A stretch of 64,000 nt of DNA from a virus. The notes under the pieces were generated by a model. That model did not search any database and was not told where the DNA came from. It was given only the letters and a program-made list of their open reading frames with translations. The stretch covers positions 1 to 64,000 of the IMG/VR virus record IMGVR_UViG_3300047323_000304; one strand, 5' to 3'. The stretch's first letter is position 1; the number at the start of each line of letters is the position of its first letter. This document shows, one piece after another, positions 17,229 through 34,719 of this stretch. The translations under genes were made by a program, and so were the position numbers.

Positions 17229-17325
17229 GGATTATTCAAATTAAATAAATAGTGGGAATATGATTAAAATGTATGTAGAAATACATGCATTAAATAAATT
17301 AAAATTTAAAGGAGGTTTCATATTT

Positions 17326-18081
17326 ATGGAACAAGAAAATCAATTACAAGTATTTACAAATGAAAAATTCGGAGAAGTAAGGACAACAAAAATTAATGGA
17401 GAGCCTTGGTTTGTTGGAAAGGATATTGCAGAAAAGCTAGGTTATAAAAATCCTAGAGACGCAGTATATAAGAGAGTTGACACCGAAGATAAAGGTGTAT
17501 GCAAAATGGCGACACCTAGTGGAGAGCAAGAGATGACTATAATTAATGAAAGTGGAATGTATTCTTTAATATTGGGAAGTAAATTACCACAAGCAAAAGA
17601 ATTTAAACGCTGGGTTACATCAGAAGTTTTACCTTCATTAAGAAGAAATGGTACATATTCAATCGAAACATCAAATGTAAATACTAATTTGGTAGATTTA
17701 GTACAAGCTACAATAACTAATATAGTACCATTAATAGCAACTGAAATGGGAAAATTAATAATGCAATCTCAAGACAAAATAGACCAAAGTATTGAAATGT
17801 TACATAATCAATCAGTAATTTATGACGCAGACAGAGAATCAATTAAGGAACTAATAGGATTTAGAAGTGTTAATACTACTAGAATAGTAAATACAACTAA
17901 AGAAATGTTAAGTGAAAAGTTAGGATATAAAGTTACTGCAACTACACCAATATTTCAAAAAGTTAAAAAGGCAATATTTAAAGAATTTAGTGTAATCAAA
18001 TGGGAAGATGTTGCAGTAGAAAAATATTCAAGAGTGTTTGCTTTTGTAGATGAATATATTAGTGAAATGGAGTGTAAATAA
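17326..18081 (+). CDS. Bro-N domain antirepressor-like protein
   Basis: 251 residues. The N-terminal Bro-N domain is clear: GEPWFVGKDIAEKLGYKNP (about 29-47), then INESGMYSLILGSKLPQAKEF and WVTSEVLPSLRRNGTY. Such proteins in phages act as antirepressors or DNA-binding regulators. The C-terminal part is a helical/coiled region and a short domain (KELIGFRSVNTTRIVN). ATG 17326 follows AAAGGAGGT; earlier in-frame starts lack a ribosome site. The gene has its own promoter and long structured leader. Confidence 0.82.
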   Translation: MEQENQLQVFTNEKFGEVRTTKINGEPWFVGKDIAEKLGYKNPRDAVYKRVDTEDKGVCKMATPSGEQEMTIINESGMYSLILGSKLPQAKEFKRWVTSEVLPSLRRNGTYSIETSNVNTNLVDLVQATITNIVPLIATEMGKLIMQSQDKIDQSIEMLHNQSVIYDADRESIKELIGFRSVNTTRIVNTTKEMLSEKLGYKVTATTPIFQKVKKAIFKEFSVIKWEDVAVEKYSRVFAFVDEYISEMECK

Positions 18082-19749: not shown

Positions 19750-19776
19750 TTGAAATTTGGTAAAAGGTGGTATAAT
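19750..19776 (+). promoter_or_regulatory. Promoter of the PIN toxin-antitoxin operon
   Basis: Extended -10 TGGTATAAT (TATAAT at 19771-19776) with TTGAAA at 19750-19755; the spacer is short at 15 bp. Confidence 0.5.
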
Positions 19777-19845
19777 ATGTTAATAAAGAGAATACAAAAT
19801 ACATTAACTTTTAGAATTAGAGTTATAAAGAATGGAGGAATTTGT

Positions 19846-20019
19846 ATGGAAAATGTTATCTCTATGGATAAATATATTGAAAACACACAATCAGATGAAT
19901 GTGAATGGGATATCATAAGAAATATATTTCAGAAGGCTATTAAGCGAAAAGGACTAACAAAAGAACAAGTTCATGAAACTTCACAAAGATTATTAAGAGA
20001 GGTAAGGGCTGAAAAATGA
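19846..20019 (+). CDS. Antitoxin of a PIN-domain module (VapB-like role)
   Basis: 57 residues beginning MENVISMDKYIE, helical (WDIIRNIFQKAIKRKGLTKEQ). ATG 19846 follows a strong TGGAGGAA. Its stop overlaps the start of the PIN gene by four bases (ATGA), the usual antitoxin-toxin coupling. Its family was not recognised; the antitoxin role comes from size, order and overlap. Confidence 0.65.
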   Translation: MENVISMDKYIENTQSDECEWDIIRNIFQKAIKRKGLTKEQVHETSQRLLREVRAEK

Positions 20020-20492
20020 ATGTAATTCTTGATACAAATGTGTTTATAGAAGCTTTATTTGAAGGGAATGAAGATTGCATTTTAATATTAAGAGAAGAAC
20101 ATAAGGGCGAGTTTCAATTGATAATGAGTAATGAAATGCATGAAGAACTATTACGAATAGTGAATAAATCAGCTAAAGAATATAATCTTTCTAATATGGA
20201 AATACTTAACACTCAGAAAATATTATCAAGAACAATATTACGAACTGAATACATAAAGCCAACTACAAAATTTAAAAAATGTAGTGATAGTGATGATAAT
20301 ATGTTCTTTTCATGTGCTATAGATGGAAATGCAGATTATATTATTAGCAGAGATAAACATGTACAAGATCTAAGAGAAAGAAAAGACCTATTGAAAAATA
20401 AAGATGGTAAAGAAATAAAGGTTTTATATCCAGATGAGTTTGTCATGGAAATCAAAAAGATTAAATTAGTTGCAAGTTTTAGTAATAATTAG
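20016..20492 (+). CDS. PIN-domain ribonuclease toxin (VapC-like)
   Basis: 158 residues. The PIN nuclease signature is clear: VILDTNVFIEAL (Asp6), a Glu near 40 (MSNEMHEEL), KCSDSDDNMFF (acidic cluster 91-94) and ADYIISRDKH (Asp113). PIN toxins cleave RNA, often tRNA, until bound by the antitoxin. It lies in a self-contained cassette with its own promoter and terminators inside a phage tail operon, and may act in maintenance or superinfection defence. Confidence 0.85.
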   Translation: MNVILDTNVFIEALFEGNEDCILILREEHKGEFQLIMSNEMHEELLRIVNKSAKEYNLSNMEILNTQKILSRTILRTEYIKPTTKFKKCSDSDDNMFFSCAIDGNADYIISRDKHVQDLRERKDLLKNKDGKEIKVLYPDEFVMEIKKIKLVASFSNN

Positions 20493-20541: not shown

Positions 20542-20576
20542 AAGACTAGATATTTTGTTTAATCTAGTCTTTTTTG
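20542..20576. terminator. Bidirectional terminator between PIN operon and repressor A
   Basis: AAGACTAGAT (20542-20551) and ATCTAGTCTT (20562-20571) form a perfect 10-bp stem, with a T-run on the plus side. The stop codon of the minus-strand repressor lies in the right arm. Confidence 0.8.
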
Positions 20577-21355
20577 TTTAATTGAAGTGTTCTCAATAAT
20601 TCATTAGATTCATTTATTAAAGATTGTAATTCTTTATCTTGTACTGTACTGAAGAATGGACTAATAGAATATATTTTTCTTATTTTTACTATAAACTCTA
20701 ATAATTGTTTATTTTTGAGTTGTTGAACAATTACAACATATAAAATTCTATAAACAAGCATAAATTTAGATGCTTCTATAGAATTAGTCATATTCTTGTA
20801 ATTATTAATATCATATATGAAATTATCGGGGAGTTCAGATTTATCAGCATTATATATTATATAGTCAGTTATTAAGAATAAATTATGTGATAGAGTAAAT
20901 TCCATTTCAAATCTAATTTGCATTTGTTCCATATCATAATCTTCTTCACTTATATAGATATCTGTAAGACTTGTAGTATTACTATTTTCTTTTTTTAGTT
21001 TATCTATTATTTGTAATGTTTTTTCATTCTTTTTAATAATATCGGTTGATATATTATTAAGATTAAAAGATTTTTTATATCTGTGCATTATATCATTGGA
21101 ATCACTAATTTTCATCCAATTTGATATCTCAGAAGGGAGAAACATTTTTTGTTGAACAGATTCTAATTCAAATAAATCATTTGGAGTACATTTAAAAAAA
21201 TCACATAATAAATCAATATGATACTTATCTATTTTTTCAAATGTATTATTTACATATTTACTAATAGTATTTTTATTAATCCCAGTATAGTCAGCGATAT
21301 CTTTTTGATTATATGGACATTGATCTATCAATTTATCTAAATTCATTTTAGACAT
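20564..21355 (-). CDS. Cro/CI-type repressor A
   Basis: 263 residues. The N-terminal helix-turn-helix reads YNQKDIADYTGINKNTISKY (about 15-34), followed by HIDLLCDFFKCTPNDLFELE, the classic HTH_3 ending. The C-terminal 130 residues are helical and homologous to repressor B (32381-33070): both share an acidic 'EEDxxxxEQxQ' start, a 'NADxSxLP' segment and the ending 'INESNxLL'. No LexA-type protease signature is visible. AGAGGTGAT precedes the start. It faces the divergent promoter at 21446. Confidence 0.85.
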   Translation of the reverse strand: MSKMNLDKLIDQCPYNQKDIADYTGINKNTISKYVNNTFEKIDKYHIDLLCDFFKCTPNDLFELESVQQKMFLPSEISNWMKISDSNDIMHRYKKSFNLNNISTDIIKKNEKTLQIIDKLKKENSNTTSLTDIYISEEDYDMEQMQIRFEMEFTLSHNLFLITDYIIYNADKSELPDNFIYDINNYKNMTNSIEASKFMLVYRILYVVIVQQLKNKQLLEFIVKIRKIYSISPFFSTVQDKELQSLINESNELLRTLQLNKKD

Positions 21356-21404: not shown

Positions 21405-21454
21405 TAAAGGGATTTAAATTTTTACTATTGTCCCTAAAAAATATATTGACAATA
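21389..21454. promoter_or_regulatory. Candidate operators for repressor A
   Basis: TATTG and CAATA half-sites occur as an inverted pair at 21389-21406, over the repressor -35, and as TATTGACAATA at 21444-21454, over the -35 of the divergent promoter. A third TATTG lies at 21426. The arrangement fits autorepression plus repression of the opposite operon. Confidence 0.5.
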
Positions 21455-21474
21455 TTTAAATTAAGGATTATTAT
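21446..21474 (+). promoter_or_regulatory. Consensus promoter of the repressor A divergent operon
   Basis: TTGACA (21446-21451), a 17-bp spacer, and TATTAT (21469-21474). A palindrome TTATG-ATTA-CATAA (21471-21484) overlaps the -10 and start site; module B has the same pattern. Confidence 0.8.
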
Positions 21475-21477
21475 GAT

Positions 21478-21600
21478 TACATAAGGTAAGTTAATCCAAC
21501 TTATCCAAATGAAAATAAGGCAATAACAAAAAATGTTATCACCTAATCCCTCGTAAAGATTAGTATAGCACATGTTTAAGCCTAAATCAAGGGAGATGTG
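21478..21600 (+). promoter_or_regulatory. Conserved structured 5' leader, copy A
   Basis: The leader starts at the predicted transcript end. Helix 1: GGTAAGTT (21485-21492) with AACTTATC (21498-21505), loop AATCC. Helix 2: ATAACA (21523-21528) with TGTTAT (21534-21539), flanked by a CA/CA internal loop and AGG/CCT. Helix 3: CTAATC (21543-21548) with GATTAG (21558-21563), loop CCTCGTAAA. TAGTATAGCA follows. Copy B at 33181-33300 keeps loops and changes paired bases in a compensating way. Confidence 0.65.
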
Positions 21601-21606
21601 TTAAAT

Positions 21607-22110
21607 ATGGAAAACAGTATTAACAAAAATGAATATTACACAGGAATAATGATGGATGTCAGGGATGTATTTATAGGCTATGGAAGATATCTAGAAAAGA
21701 ATAGTATTAATGAACAAGGAGATATTTCTGATTACGAAAATTACCTACATAACAGAGAAGAAGAAAATTGTACAAACTATCAGTTAAATAATGATTTATC
21801 AGATAGGAATATAGAATATATAGAGTTTATATCTTGGATATTAGAACAATCTCATTTAGATGAACAATTAAATGTTATTAGACAAGAAGAATGGGATAGA
21901 TTTTGGGAATCAGAAGATAAAGACGATGAAATAGACATGGAAATTGTACAAGCTGGTGATTTCTACAAAGAATTTGAAAAGCTTGTTGGTATAGATGATT
22001 TCGATGAATGTTTTGTTCATATGAAATACATAAATGAATTGCAGAATAGCGTTAATTTAATAGTGAATATTAATGGTATTAATCAAAGATTTATTATTGA
22101 TGTACTTTAA
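21607..22110 (+). CDS. Leader-controlled accessory protein of unknown function
   Basis: 167 residues, strongly acidic (SEDKDDEIDMEIVQ), with Tyr-rich N-terminal helices. It is the first gene after the consensus promoter and structured leader of module A. ATG 21607 is preferred over GTG 21598, which lies within the ribosome site AAGGGAGATG. It occupies the place held by the Bro-N antirepressor in module B. No motif was recognised; an acidic regulator or DNA mimic is possible but unproven. Confidence 0.65.
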   Translation: MENSINKNEYYTGIMMDVRDVFIGYGRYLEKNSINEQGDISDYENYLHNREEENCTNYQLNNDLSDRNIEYIEFISWILEQSHLDEQLNVIRQEEWDRFWESEDKDDEIDMEIVQAGDFYKEFEKLVGIDDFDECFVHMKYINELQNSVNLIVNINGINQRFIIDVL

Positions 22111-22482: not shown

Positions 22483-22524
22483 TATAATGGTCGAAAATAA
22501 ATTATGAGAAAGGTCGAGATTGTA

Positions 22525-23742
22525 ATGTCAAAGAGAACAATATATAAATATAAAGCAGAAGATTTAATAGAGGGTAAGTACAGTAATATTAAAATTATTA
22601 AACCAATTAGAATTAAATATAATAGTGGAAGAAATGTTAAAGGGTATGAGTATAAATGCTTAAAATGTGATAATATAGATAAAATAACTGAAGCACAGAT
22701 TATTAATCAAAAATGTGGTTGTAATATGTGTTGCCCTAGTCCACAAAAAGTAGTTACAGGAATTAATGATATTGGAACTTCACATCCACATTTAATAAAG
22801 TATTTTAAAAACATTGAAGATTGTTATAAATATTCGTATCAGAGTAATGTATCTGTTCGTGTAATATGCCCTTATTGTGGACAAGAAAAAGATAGAAAAA
22901 TTTATAAATTAAATAAAGAAGGTCTTGCTTGCTCTTGCAACGATAAGGTGAGTTATCCAAATAAATTTATAACAGAATTAACAAAACAGTTAAATATAGA
23001 TTTTGAAACAGAAAAAATATTTGAGTGGTCAGGTTTAAAAAGATATGATGTCTATATATCCAACAAATATGTCATAGAAAATCATGGAATTCAACATTAT
23101 GAAGAATCTCCAAGAGGTCTTTCTTTAAAAAAAGAACAATTAAATGATAAGTTGAAGAAAGAATTAGCTTTAAATAATGGAATTAAAGAAGAAAATTATA
23201 TTGTGATAGATTGTAGAAAATCTGAATTAGAATGGATTAAAGATTCTATATTAAATAGTAGATTAGCATATTTATTTTATTTAGGTAATATTAATTGGTT
23301 AAAATGTCATGAGTTTGCACTATCTAATTTAGTACAAACCGCTTGTGAATATAAGAATAATAATATTAATATGACAATTAAAGACGTAAGTAAAATAATG
23401 GGGTTCAGTACTGATACAATCAGAAGATGGTTCAAACAAGGAAGTAAAATAAATTGGTGTCATTATGACTCTAAAGAGGAAGCTAGAAAAAGTGCAGATA
23501 ATAATAGAATTTTAAAAGAAATAATTTCAATTAATAATGGACTTATATTTGAATCTGCTAGAGAAATAGATAGACAATCAATTAAAATATTTAGAACTAA
23601 ATTGGATTATAGAAATATTTCAGCAGTTTGTAATGGAGTACAAAAAACACATAAAGGATTTCAATTTAAGTTTACACAAGATTTAACTGAAGCACAAATA
23701 AAAGATATTCAAGAAAATGCAAAATTAAATCAAGCAATGTAA
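22525..23742 (+). CDS. Vsr-like homing endonuclease with zinc knuckles, paralog
   Basis: About 405 residues and built like 14115-15701: Cys pairs (CLKC, CNMC, CPYC, CSC), nuclease core RYDVYISN (about 173), ENHGIQHYEE (about 185-194) and NYIVIDCRKSELEW, a helix-turn-helix (IMGFSTDTIRRWFKQG) and an 'AVCNGVQKTHKGFQFKF' ending. ATG 22525 follows AGAAAGGTCGAG; ATG 22504 is an alternative. The near-identical segments point to a recent duplication of a mobile gene inside this phage. Confidence 0.78.
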   Translation: MSKRTIYKYKAEDLIEGKYSNIKIIKPIRIKYNSGRNVKGYEYKCLKCDNIDKITEAQIINQKCGCNMCCPSPQKVVTGINDIGTSHPHLIKYFKNIEDCYKYSYQSNVSVRVICPYCGQEKDRKIYKLNKEGLACSCNDKVSYPNKFITELTKQLNIDFETEKIFEWSGLKRYDVYISNKYVIENHGIQHYEESPRGLSLKKEQLNDKLKKELALNNGIKEENYIVIDCRKSELEWIKDSILNSRLAYLFYLGNINWLKCHEFALSNLVQTACEYKNNNINMTIKDVSKIMGFSTDTIRRWFKQGSKINWCHYDSKEEARKSADNNRILKEIISINNGLIFESAREIDRQSIKIFRTKLDYRNISAVCNGVQKTHKGFQFKFTQDLTEAQIKDIQENAKLNQAM

Positions 23743-33070: not shown

Positions 33071-33091
33071 TATAATTACCTCCTTTGTTTA

Positions 33092-33127
33092 AATATATTA
33101 TACCTCAACATATATTATGTTTGCAAA
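33092..33127 (-). promoter_or_regulatory. Promoter of repressor B
   Basis: On the minus strand, TTGCAA lies 18 bp upstream of TATAAT. Between them is AACATA-ATA-TATGTT, an inverted repeat (33107-33121) that may be an operator. Confidence 0.6.
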
Positions 33128-33147
33128 TATTTTTTAAAAAATAACTA

Positions 33148-33176
33148 TTGACAGATAGTATGTGAAGAGATATTAT
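33148..33176 (+). promoter_or_regulatory. Consensus promoter of the repressor B divergent operon
   Basis: TTGACA (33148-33153), a 17-bp spacer, and TATTAT (33171-33176). ACTAT/ATAGT (33145-33160) is an inverted repeat over the -35, and the perfect palindrome TTATGTATACATAA (33173-33186) covers the -10 and start site. Confidence 0.82.
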
Positions 33177-33180
33177 GTAT

Positions 33181-33300
33181 ACATAAGGTAAGTTAATCCA
33201 ATTTACCTAAATAAAAATAAGGCAGTAACAATATTGCTACCACCAACTCTCGCAAAGTTAGTATAGCATAAAATTACTCCTTAATCAATAAGGGAGATGT
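33181..33300 (+). promoter_or_regulatory. Conserved structured 5' leader, copy B
   Basis: Helix 1: GGTAAGTT (33187-33194) with AATTTACC (33200-33207), loop AATCC as in copy A. Helix 2: GTA and CAAT with ATTG and TAC, again flanked by CA/CA. Helix 3: AAC with GTT, loop TCTCGCAAA. TAGTATAGCA is identical. CTCCTTA (33277-33283) can pair with the ribosome site TAAGGGAG (33289-33296), so translation control is possible in this copy. Confidence 0.65.
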
Positions 33301-33307
33301 ATTAATT

Positions 33308-33970
33308 ATGGGAAATCAATTACAAATTTTTAACAATGAGGAATTTGGACAAGTTAGAAGTATAAGATTGAAAGGAAAAGATTATTTTGTAGCCAATGAT
33401 ATAGCAAAGGCATTAGGTTATATTTCGCCAAAGGACGCAATTACAAGACATTGTAAGGGGGCGACAAAAGTAAGCTACCTTACTGAAGGAGGAAATCAAG
33501 AAGTTAAGTTTATTCCAGAAGGGGATATATTTAGATTAGTGTCTAGGTCAAAATTACCTAACGCTGAAAAATTTGAATGTTGGATATTTGATGACTTACT
33601 TCCAACACTAAGACGAACAGGGAAATATGAACTACATAATGAGGAAGATGAAAAATCACAAACAGAATTAGAACAAATAGCAACCAATATATTTGGACAA
33701 TTAGATACTAAAATCACTAAGTTGGATGAGTATTATAGACCTAGACATAAAACCAAACTAGGATTAAATAAATTTATTAAAGATTGTTTAGGTGATAATG
33801 CCACAACAGAGAATTGCAAGAAAGCTAAGAATACATTATTAACTCTTTTAGGTAATTATTCTATATATGAAGAAGTACCTATAGATAGATTACAAGATAC
33901 TAATACTATAGCTAGGTTATACGATATTTGCAAAAATATTAACAATTCTATAGTTGGAGGTATACAATAA
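33308..33970 (+). CDS. Bro-N domain antirepressor-like protein
   Basis: 220 residues. Bro-N domain: KDYFVANDIAKALGYISPKD (about 25-44), then IPEGDIFRLVSRSKLPNAEKF and WIFDDLLPTLRRTGKY. The C-terminal part is different from that of 17326-18081 (GLNKFIKDCLGDNATTENC). It is the first gene after the leader of module B, so a repressor/antirepressor pair is likely. The stop overlaps the next start (TAATG). Confidence 0.82.
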   Translation: MGNQLQIFNNEEFGQVRSIRLKGKDYFVANDIAKALGYISPKDAITRHCKGATKVSYLTEGGNQEVKFIPEGDIFRLVSRSKLPNAEKFECWIFDDLLPTLRRTGKYELHNEEDEKSQTELEQIATNIFGQLDTKITKLDEYYRPRHKTKLGLNKFIKDCLGDNATTENCKKAKNTLLTLLGNYSIYEEVPIDRLQDTNTIARLYDICKNINNSIVGGIQ

Positions 33971-34719
33971 TGAGTGATTTGACTTATTTTGAAGTATTAG
34001 AATTACAAATGTACAAAGAAAAATGTATAACTCTTGGTATATATTATAAACATAATAATATCCAATACGATAAAGAAAAACTTAATGTAACAGAACTTTT
34101 ATATATAGAATTTGGTAGGTTTTGTGAGTATTATGAATTAGATTCTAGTTTATTTATTAACTATGAGAAGTATTTAGAATGTGGTGGAATTGAATGGAAT
34201 GTTGATAATAAAGAATTTGATTCAATAGAAGAAAATCAACTATATACTTTTATAAGAAGATTAAAAATTGGTGAATATAAAGTTATTTTATTTAATGAAG
34301 AAATTCCGATGGTTAATGATGAACATTATAATTCTATGGTGGGTTATGTATTTGATGAATTAAGAGAAGATAGTGTTATAGAAGTTGGTTTTGATACTCT
34401 AAAAATAATTCAAACCAATGGAGAAGAAATATTTTTAGAAGGACTAGAAGAAATATCAGAAGGAGAAATATTTGCAAGAAGATTTTTAAATAAATGTGAA
34501 TATGACACTTTAATTGTAAAAGACTTTTTGGGACAAGTTGATTTTGAAGATCATAATTATAAAGACATAAAAAAAGATAACTATTATTGCAAATGCAAAG
34601 ATATAACTAATATAAGAACAATGCCTGAAGATAGCGAACACTATAATATGAATTATGGGAATATTATAGTGGGATATGGAGAAGAAGATTTCTTTGAAGA
34701 AATTTGGCAACAAGGTTAA
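33970..34719 (+). CDS. Accessory acidic protein of unknown function
   Basis: 249 residues, very acidic and Tyr-rich (e.g. CGGIEWNVDNKEFDSIEENQ), translationally coupled to the Bro-N gene. It contains a Cys-bearing YYCKCKDITN segment near the C-terminus. No family was recognised. Like 21607-22110 in module A it is an acidic leader-controlled protein. Confidence 0.62.
   Translation: MSDLTYFEVLELQMYKEKCITLGIYYKHNNIQYDKEKLNVTELLYIEFGRFCEYYELDSSLFINYEKYLECGGIEWNVDNKEFDSIEENQLYTFIRRLKIGEYKVILFNEEIPMVNDEHYNSMVGYVFDELREDSVIEVGFDTLKIIQTNGEEIFLEGLEEISEGEIFARRFLNKCEYDTLIVKDFLGQVDFEDHNYKDIKKDNYYCKCKDITNIRTMPEDSEHYNMNYGNIIVGYGEEDFFEEIWQQG

What the first reader, a model, noticed from the sequence alone, without database searches (positions are those of the whole stretch)
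21444..21606. Duplicated repressor module with a conserved structured 5' leader (copy A)
The transcript from a TTGACA-17-TATTAT promoter begins with three hairpins whose loops (AATCC, the CA/CA internal loop, (C/T)CTCG(T/C)AAA) are conserved in copy B, while stems differ by compensating changes (G-U to G-C in helix 1, A-T to G-C in helix 2). That pattern indicates a selected RNA structure. It sits between a CI-like repressor and an acidic protein gene inside a tail operon. No known riboswitch class was recognised.
Basis: partly seen in the sequence, partly recalled or inferred. Interest (0 to 1): 0.78.

Follow-up and report, generated by a model that had tools for sequence, protein, structure and literature searches.

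The report
Phage antisense RNA on leader
The "structured leader" is the target of a tiny RNA apparently made from the opposite DNA strand: a family of about 45-base antisense RNAs, absent from the Rfam library, predicted to switch off accessory phage genes (an antirepressor here, integrases elsewhere) in large, AT-rich, probably clostridial phages.

Summary
The duplicated leader is real (A 21444-21606, B 33140-33307; 77% identical), but its central feature was read on the wrong strand. In 21 of 22 homologous variants that could be scored, "hairpin 2" never forms a G-U pair on the mRNA strand. All 49 departures from Watson-Crick are A-C, which are G-U pairs on the opposite strand. There it is a complete intrinsic terminator (GGURRUARC...GUURYUGCC-UUAUUUU). 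About 40 nt upstream on that strand every member has a promoter (TTGNNT-17-TGYTATACT type) whose start site falls in the conserved loop of hairpin 3. These define a ~45-nt counter-transcribed RNA: 5' tail plus terminator hairpin, the anatomy of plasmid pMV158 RNAII. The mRNA leader also carries a covarying long-range helix (UAAGG-RYAAC with GUURY-CCUUA) holding the anti-Shine-Dalgarno strand. Antisense pairing should release that strand to mask the Shine-Dalgarno (strong prediction in canonical members, weak in the two window copies). The cassette sits between a divergent repressor and varied cargo: BRO antirepressor (copy B), acidic proteins, tyrosine integrase, a small plasmid gene. No Rfam family matches. 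It works like P22 immI (repressor + sar + ant) and pMV158 copG-RNAII, without detectable homology. No expression data exist.

The parts
20564..21355 (-). Copy A divergent repressor, 263 aa, Cro/CI-type HTH_26
   Evidence: Pfam HTH_26 E 1.9e-12; PHROG transcriptional regulator
21446..21474 (+). Copy A mRNA promoter TTGACA-17-TATTAT (start about 21481)
   Evidence: 11/12 match; equivalent in most homologs
21485..21506 (+). Hairpin 1 of the mRNA (GGTAAGTT-AATCC-AACTTATCC), variable and optional 5' hairpin
   Evidence: loop and stem sequence change between homologs and it is absent in L032, L085, L165, L284, L287
21510..21554 (-). Copy A antisense RNA (about 45 nt): 5' tail 21554-21545, terminator hairpin 21544-21518, U-tract 21517-21510. 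Start inferred from the promoter
   Evidence: terminator; 5'-tail + hairpin fold; one of only two extended -10 + terminator mini-transcripts in 64 kb
21562..21590 (-). Copy A antisense promoter TTGATT-17-TATACT with TGC before the -10 (-35 21590-21585, -10 21567-21562)
   Evidence: same spacing and position in all 22 variants (one has spacing 18)
21544..21562 (+). Hairpin 3 of the mRNA, loop CCTCGTAAA (YUNR motif CUCG) = recognition loop for the antisense 5' tail
   Evidence: arms covary (own versus swapped, 0/5000); loop conserved
21516..21528 (+). 5' strand of the mRNA long-range helix (UAAGGC and AACA), covered by the antisense RNA
   Evidence: own versus swapped partner test, z about -5
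21573..21584 (+). 3' strand of the long-range helix (UGUU) and anti-Shine-Dalgarno (GCCU, 21580-21583)
   Evidence: alternative pairing with the Shine-Dalgarno
21591..21595 (+). Shine-Dalgarno GGGAG of gene A (start codon 21607)
   Evidence: sequence; accessibility
21607..22110 (+). Cargo gene A: acidic protein, 167 aa, no known family
   Evidence: no Pfam or PHROG hit; homologs behind the same leader in L009, L013, L032
32381..33070 (-). Copy B divergent repressor, 229 aa, HTH_26
   Evidence: E 4.5e-16
33148..33176 (+). Copy B mRNA promoter TTGACA-17-TATTAT
33213..33253 (-). Copy B antisense RNA: tail 33253-33245, terminator hairpin 33244-33221, U-tract 33220-33213
33260..33288 (-). Copy B antisense promoter TTGATT-17-TATACT with TGC before the -10
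33308..33970 (+). Cargo gene B: BRO-N antirepressor
   Evidence: PF02498 E 2.7e-19; PHROG anti-repressor Ant
33970..34719 (+). Second gene of operon B, acidic; an L016 relative lies directly behind the leader

Best explanation
Each copy is an antisense-RNA-controlled expression cassette. A rightward promoter, probably repressed by the divergent HTH protein, makes the mRNA. A second, leftward promoter inside the leader makes a ~45-nt RNA with a short 5' tail and a terminator hairpin, fully complementary to the leader just upstream of the ribosome-binding site (promoter and terminator shown by sequence conservation; transcription inferred). In free mRNA the leader folds into one long interrupted hairpin: UAAGG-RYAAC pairs with GUURY-CCUUA, then GYUA with UARC, then hairpin 3. 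This locks away the anti-Shine-Dalgarno CCUUA and exposes the conserved CUCG loop. The antisense 5' tail pairs with that loop and zips through the 5' side (inferred). This frees CCUUA to pair with the Shine-Dalgarno AAGG and shuts off translation (computed for canonical members; inferred for copies A and B). The likely biological role is a second lock, on top of the repressor, on genes dangerous to a resident phage, such as an antirepressor or an integrase (inferred).
For: Strand test: in hairpin 2 across 21 scorable variants, 140 Watson-Crick cells, 49 A-C cells (= G-U on minus), 0 plus-strand G-U, 0 other; minus-strand folding is more stable in 22/22 (mean -10.0 vs -3.0 kcal/mol). Tool counts: 100% paired on minus, 73.7% on plus. 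An independent scanner finds a single terminator in A and in B, on the minus strand at this spot (0.1 expected), and the equivalent one in plasmid L165. Promoter: all 22 variants have -35/-10 at 17 nt (one at 18); of the 21 with spacing 17, 21/21 have TA...T in the -10, 18/21 have the TG of an extended -10, and the start falls in the hairpin-3 loop. In 64 kb, the only two extended -10 promoter + terminator mini-transcripts on either strand are these two. mRNA refolding helix: own partners -10.4 vs -8.4 kcal/mol for swapped, 0/5000 permutations as good. Masking the antisense site lowers Shine-Dalgarno accessibility from 0.70-0.79 to 0.03-0.14 in L085, L165, L284 and L287, and on average from 0.45 to 0.24. 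Antisense tails are specific: A on A -22.2, A on B -8.6; B on B -26.2, B on A -12.0 kcal/mol. The cassette is kept while repressor class and cargo change.
Against: No transcript data. Each antisense promoter alone is moderate (8-10 of 12; on average 14% of shuffles reach it), so the case rests on conserved position. For window copies A and B the model predicts a masked Shine-Dalgarno with or without antisense RNA (0.24/0.24 and 0.11/0.04), so refolding is not demonstrated there; direct blocking or RNase III cleavage could act instead. The members are related, so covariation counts are not independent events. The function of hairpin 1 is unexplained.
Confidence: 0.8

Rival explanations
1. Antisense RNA exists but acts by directly covering the translation start region or by recruiting RNase III / blocking leader folding, not by releasing an anti-Shine-Dalgarno strand.
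For: Accessibility change is negligible for copies A and B; pMV158 RNAII acts just upstream of atypical initiation signals (PMC4485353).
Against: The UAAGG/CCUUA and RYAAC/GUURY complementarity is maintained by covariation and gives a strong predicted switch in four canonical members.
Confidence: 0.3
2. A ligand- or protein-binding leader (riboswitch-like).
For: Conserved loop and covarying helices on the mRNA strand; unrelated cargo genes share it.
Against: Conserved sequence blocks coincide with -35, extended -10, start site and terminator of a minus-strand gene; hairpin 2 is not a plus-strand structure; loop and seed sequences differ between the two copies in a pairing-specific way, unlike a ligand pocket.
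Confidence: 0.06
3. Hairpin 2 is only a leftward terminator protecting the repressor region from antisense read-through; no dedicated antisense RNA.
For: A functional terminator on the minus strand is well supported.
Against: The nearest minus-strand ORFs to the right of either leader are small overlapping ones, so no obvious gene needs termination; a promoter at fixed spacing accompanies the terminator in every variant.
Confidence: 0.08
4. A put- or EAR-like antitermination RNA at the start of a phage operon.
For: Structured element directly at the transcript start, in two copies per genome.
Against: The core also occurs without its own promoter or hairpin 1 (L284 directly after a coding sequence) and before a single small plasmid gene; it is closely linked to the Shine-Dalgarno region.
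Confidence: 0.03

Closest known systems
Plasmid pMV158 RNAII with repressor CopG (copG-repB control)
   Same: [quoted passage not shown] paired with a transcriptional repressor (PMC4485353).
   Different: Phage genes, not rep; repressor is divergent, not co-transcribed, and of several classes; leader has an anti-Shine-Dalgarno switch; in the plasmid collection only pRGI01042 was found to carry the leader core.
Phage P22 immI: repressor / sar antisense RNA / ant antirepressor
   Same: Repressor plus small antisense RNA controlling translation of an antirepressor (PMC12197685; PMC12111858); copy B has the same parts list.
   Different: sar is 68-69 nt; here the RNA lies in the leader and is predicted to act by refolding; no Rfam model fits; hosts and proteins unrelated.
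Phage P1/P7 c4 RNA
   Same: Antisense control of an antirepressor.
   Different: c4 is 77 nt and listed as trans-acting, whereas here a separate opposite-strand promoter is used; the Rfam library scanned gave no match.
pT181 / pIP501 antisense attenuation
   Same: Antisense pairing removes a competing partner so that an inhibitory hairpin forms (logic from general knowledge).
   Different: There the output is attenuation of transcription (PMC5415839); here no U-run follows the hairpin, so the predicted output is translational.
hok/Sok-type 5'-tail to loop recognition with YUNR U-turn
   Same: Antisense 5' end complementary to a target hairpin loop carrying YUNR (described in PMC4485353); CUCR or CUAG in 17 of 22 members (counted by eye).
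   Different: Not a toxin gene; recognition step not tested.

Membership tests
Cis-encoded antisense (counter-transcribed) RNA | Own promoter on the strand opposite the target | tested here: met
   TTGNNT-17-TATACT-type promoter in all 22 variants; transcription itself not testable
Cis-encoded antisense (counter-transcribed) RNA | Short untranslated RNA ending at an intrinsic terminator | tested here: met
   about 45 nt
Cis-encoded antisense (counter-transcribed) RNA | Represses the sense gene in trans | not testable with these tools
   needs bench work
pMV158 RNAII family | 5' tail + single terminator hairpin, with a transcriptional repressor in the same locus | tested here: met
   folds; repressors
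pMV158 RNAII family | Sequence homology / control of a rep gene | tested here: not met
   cargo are antirepressor, integrase and acidic genes; plasmid blastn finds only pRGI01042 with the core. So works like, not a member
P22 sar / P1 c4 | Antisense RNA controlling an antirepressor | tested here: met
   copy B BRO antirepressor; only for some members; control itself is inferred
P22 sar / P1 c4 | Match to a described RNA family | tested here: not met
   no Rfam match, both strands; sar itself was not compared by sequence
Any Rfam riboswitch class | Covariance-model match | tested here: not met
Type I toxin-antitoxin | Small hydrophobic toxin under antisense RNA | tested here: not met
   cargo are acidic/soluble, antirepressor or integrase

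The most novel reading that the evidence does not exclude
A portable antisense-RNA lock that large clostridial phages (and at least one small plasmid) move between unrelated genes and pair with whatever DNA-binding repressor is at hand. The tail/loop sequence would set allele-specific immunity between phages, and translation would be shut by release of an anti-Shine-Dalgarno strand.
Probability: 0.5. Interest if true: 0.72.

Novelty: new variant of a known kind. Interest (0 to 1): 0.6.

Why it matters
It turns an apparent orphan riboswitch into a testable antisense RNA family with no Rfam entry, in a phage group where such control seems undescribed in the papers searched. It predicts which RNA regulates an antirepressor here and integrases elsewhere. 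It also gives a compact natural translational switch with evidently orthogonal copies in one genome, and it shows how G-U versus A-C bookkeeping tells which strand a conserved hairpin belongs to.

Tried and rejected
Known riboswitch or RNA family: nothing in Rfam. Upstream peptide: an ATG appears after AAGG in some members but not in others, so rejected. Conserved AATCC loop: rejected by wider homologs. Two-state plus-strand switch between hairpin 2 and the long-range helix: abandoned when the mismatches proved to be minus-strand G-U pairs. Bacterial genomes: the hairpin-1 pattern gave five chance hits, and 398 genomes of one Bacillota group gave none, but that sample had no positive control and probably lacks the hosts. 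Phage hits in staphylococcal and Clostridioides records were promoter-like or Shine-Dalgarno-only matches. Repressor-based search gave the known loci plus distant HTH proteins; nine of those records were scanned and lack the leader. A pair count with a mis-set column was redone.

Full report
OBSERVATION. The leader described at 21444-21606 has a promoter TTGACA-17-TATTAT (21446-21474) and a second copy at 33135-33315 (77% identity). Both lie between a divergent HTH_26 repressor and a rightward gene, in a region with tape measure and Dit genes. The genome is a 193.9 kb virus record with exactly these two copies. Both leaders fold better than shuffles (z -2.2 to -2.9), and no Rfam family fits.

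HOMOLOGS. Pattern and protein searches of IMG/VR, the phage and plasmid collections and whole records gave 22 distinct leader variants, including a second copy in a 229 kb relative (L032) and one in the 2.3 kb plasmid pRGI01042 (L165). A covariance model of the core finds the members tested at E 2e-5 or better in their records. The loop AATCC of hairpin 1 is confined to the nearest relatives, and hairpin 1 is absent in five members. The core is AAGGCARYARC ... GYUAYYACC ... hairpin 3 ... RUARC ... CCUUAA. Most of the more distant members were found with a pattern that fixed part of this; A, B, L009, L011, L013, L016, L032, L165, L284 and L287 were not.

STRAND. In the hairpin 2 helix, 21 scorable variants give 140 Watson-Crick pairs and 49 A-C oppositions, with no plus-strand G-U and nothing else. 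A-C on one strand is G-U on the other. Tool counts on 11 aligned sequences give 100% standard pairs on the minus strand and 73.7% on the plus. All 22 fold better on the minus strand. The A-run before the hairpin is the U-tract of an intrinsic terminator, found independently by a scanner in A, B and L165.

PROMOTER. Reading leftward, a -35 of the form TTGNNT (TTTACA in L032), 17 nt (18 in L284) and TATACT (or TATCAT/TACAAT), mostly with TG one base before it, precedes the terminator in every variant. TA and the final T of the -10 are invariant, and the inferred start lies 6-8 nt further, in the conserved loop of hairpin 3. Individual promoter scores are moderate (on average 14% of shuffles match them); conservation of position is the evidence. 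Across both strands of the 64 kb window only these two places join an extended -10 promoter to a terminator within 75 nt. The RNA is a 5' tail of about 9-13 nt plus the hairpin.

mRNA FOLD. With hairpin 2 assigned to the other strand, the mRNA pairs differently. 5' UAAGG(CA)RYAAC pairs with GUURY(U)CCUUA near the Shine-Dalgarno; own partners beat swapped partners (-10.4 against -8.4 kcal/mol, 0 of 5000). Inside it GYUA pairs with UARC (44 of 44 cells, one compensatory pair), then hairpin 3, whose arms also covary. CCUUA is also the strand that can mask the Shine-Dalgarno.

MECHANISM. Making the antisense-covered bases unavailable lowers predicted Shine-Dalgarno accessibility from 0.45 to 0.24 on average. 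In four canonical members (L085, L165, L284, L287) it goes from 0.70-0.79 to 0.03-0.14. In copies A and B there is almost no change, because their Shine-Dalgarno is predicted masked either way. So the antisense RNA is well supported; the refolding step is well supported in canonical members and only inferred in the window. Copies A and B are predicted not to cross-react strongly.

CONTEXT. The cassette follows HTH_26, other HTH or ribbon-helix-helix-like repressors (the last two classes judged by eye) and precedes acidic proteins of no known family, BRO antirepressors, tyrosine integrases (L085/L112, L287) or a small plasmid gene. Copy B (repressor, antisense RNA, antirepressor) is the functional counterpart of P22 immI, where sar RNA blocks ant translation. 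The RNA's anatomy and its pairing with a repressor match pMV158 RNAII/CopG. Neither resemblance is backed by homology. Paper searches for antisense RNA with antirepressors, integrases or clostridial phages did not reveal a description of this RNA, though the library is incomplete. The host assignment to clostridia is an inference from low G+C content and the plasmid/phage neighbourhood; it was not tested.

VERDICT. Real, selected and misread: an antisense RNA target, not a riboswitch-like leader. New variant of a known kind.

Noticed in passing
17260-18081: A further antirepressor-like protein (PHROG anti-repressor Ant, E 1.9e-51) upstream of the module, without this leader.
   Followed up: no
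19750-20492: PIN-domain protein with a small upstream ORF beside copy A, looks like a toxin-antitoxin pair.
   Followed up: no
22504-23742: Homing-endonuclease-like protein (weak I-HmuI NUMOD-like match) between copy A and the tape measure gene; similar insertions near the cassette in relatives.
   Followed up: no
33080-33180 and L011, L013, L016: By eye, palindromes like ACATANTRTATGT lie next to the repressor start and over the mRNA promoter: likely repressor operators.
   Followed up: no
L085, L112, L287: The same leader core lies before a tyrosine integrase gene, suggesting antisense control of integration.
   Followed up: partly
L248:5761-9287: Four near-identical copies of a promoter/operator TTGACTTAAGGTTAACACCTATGCTATACT in one phage, unrelated to this element.
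   Followed up: no
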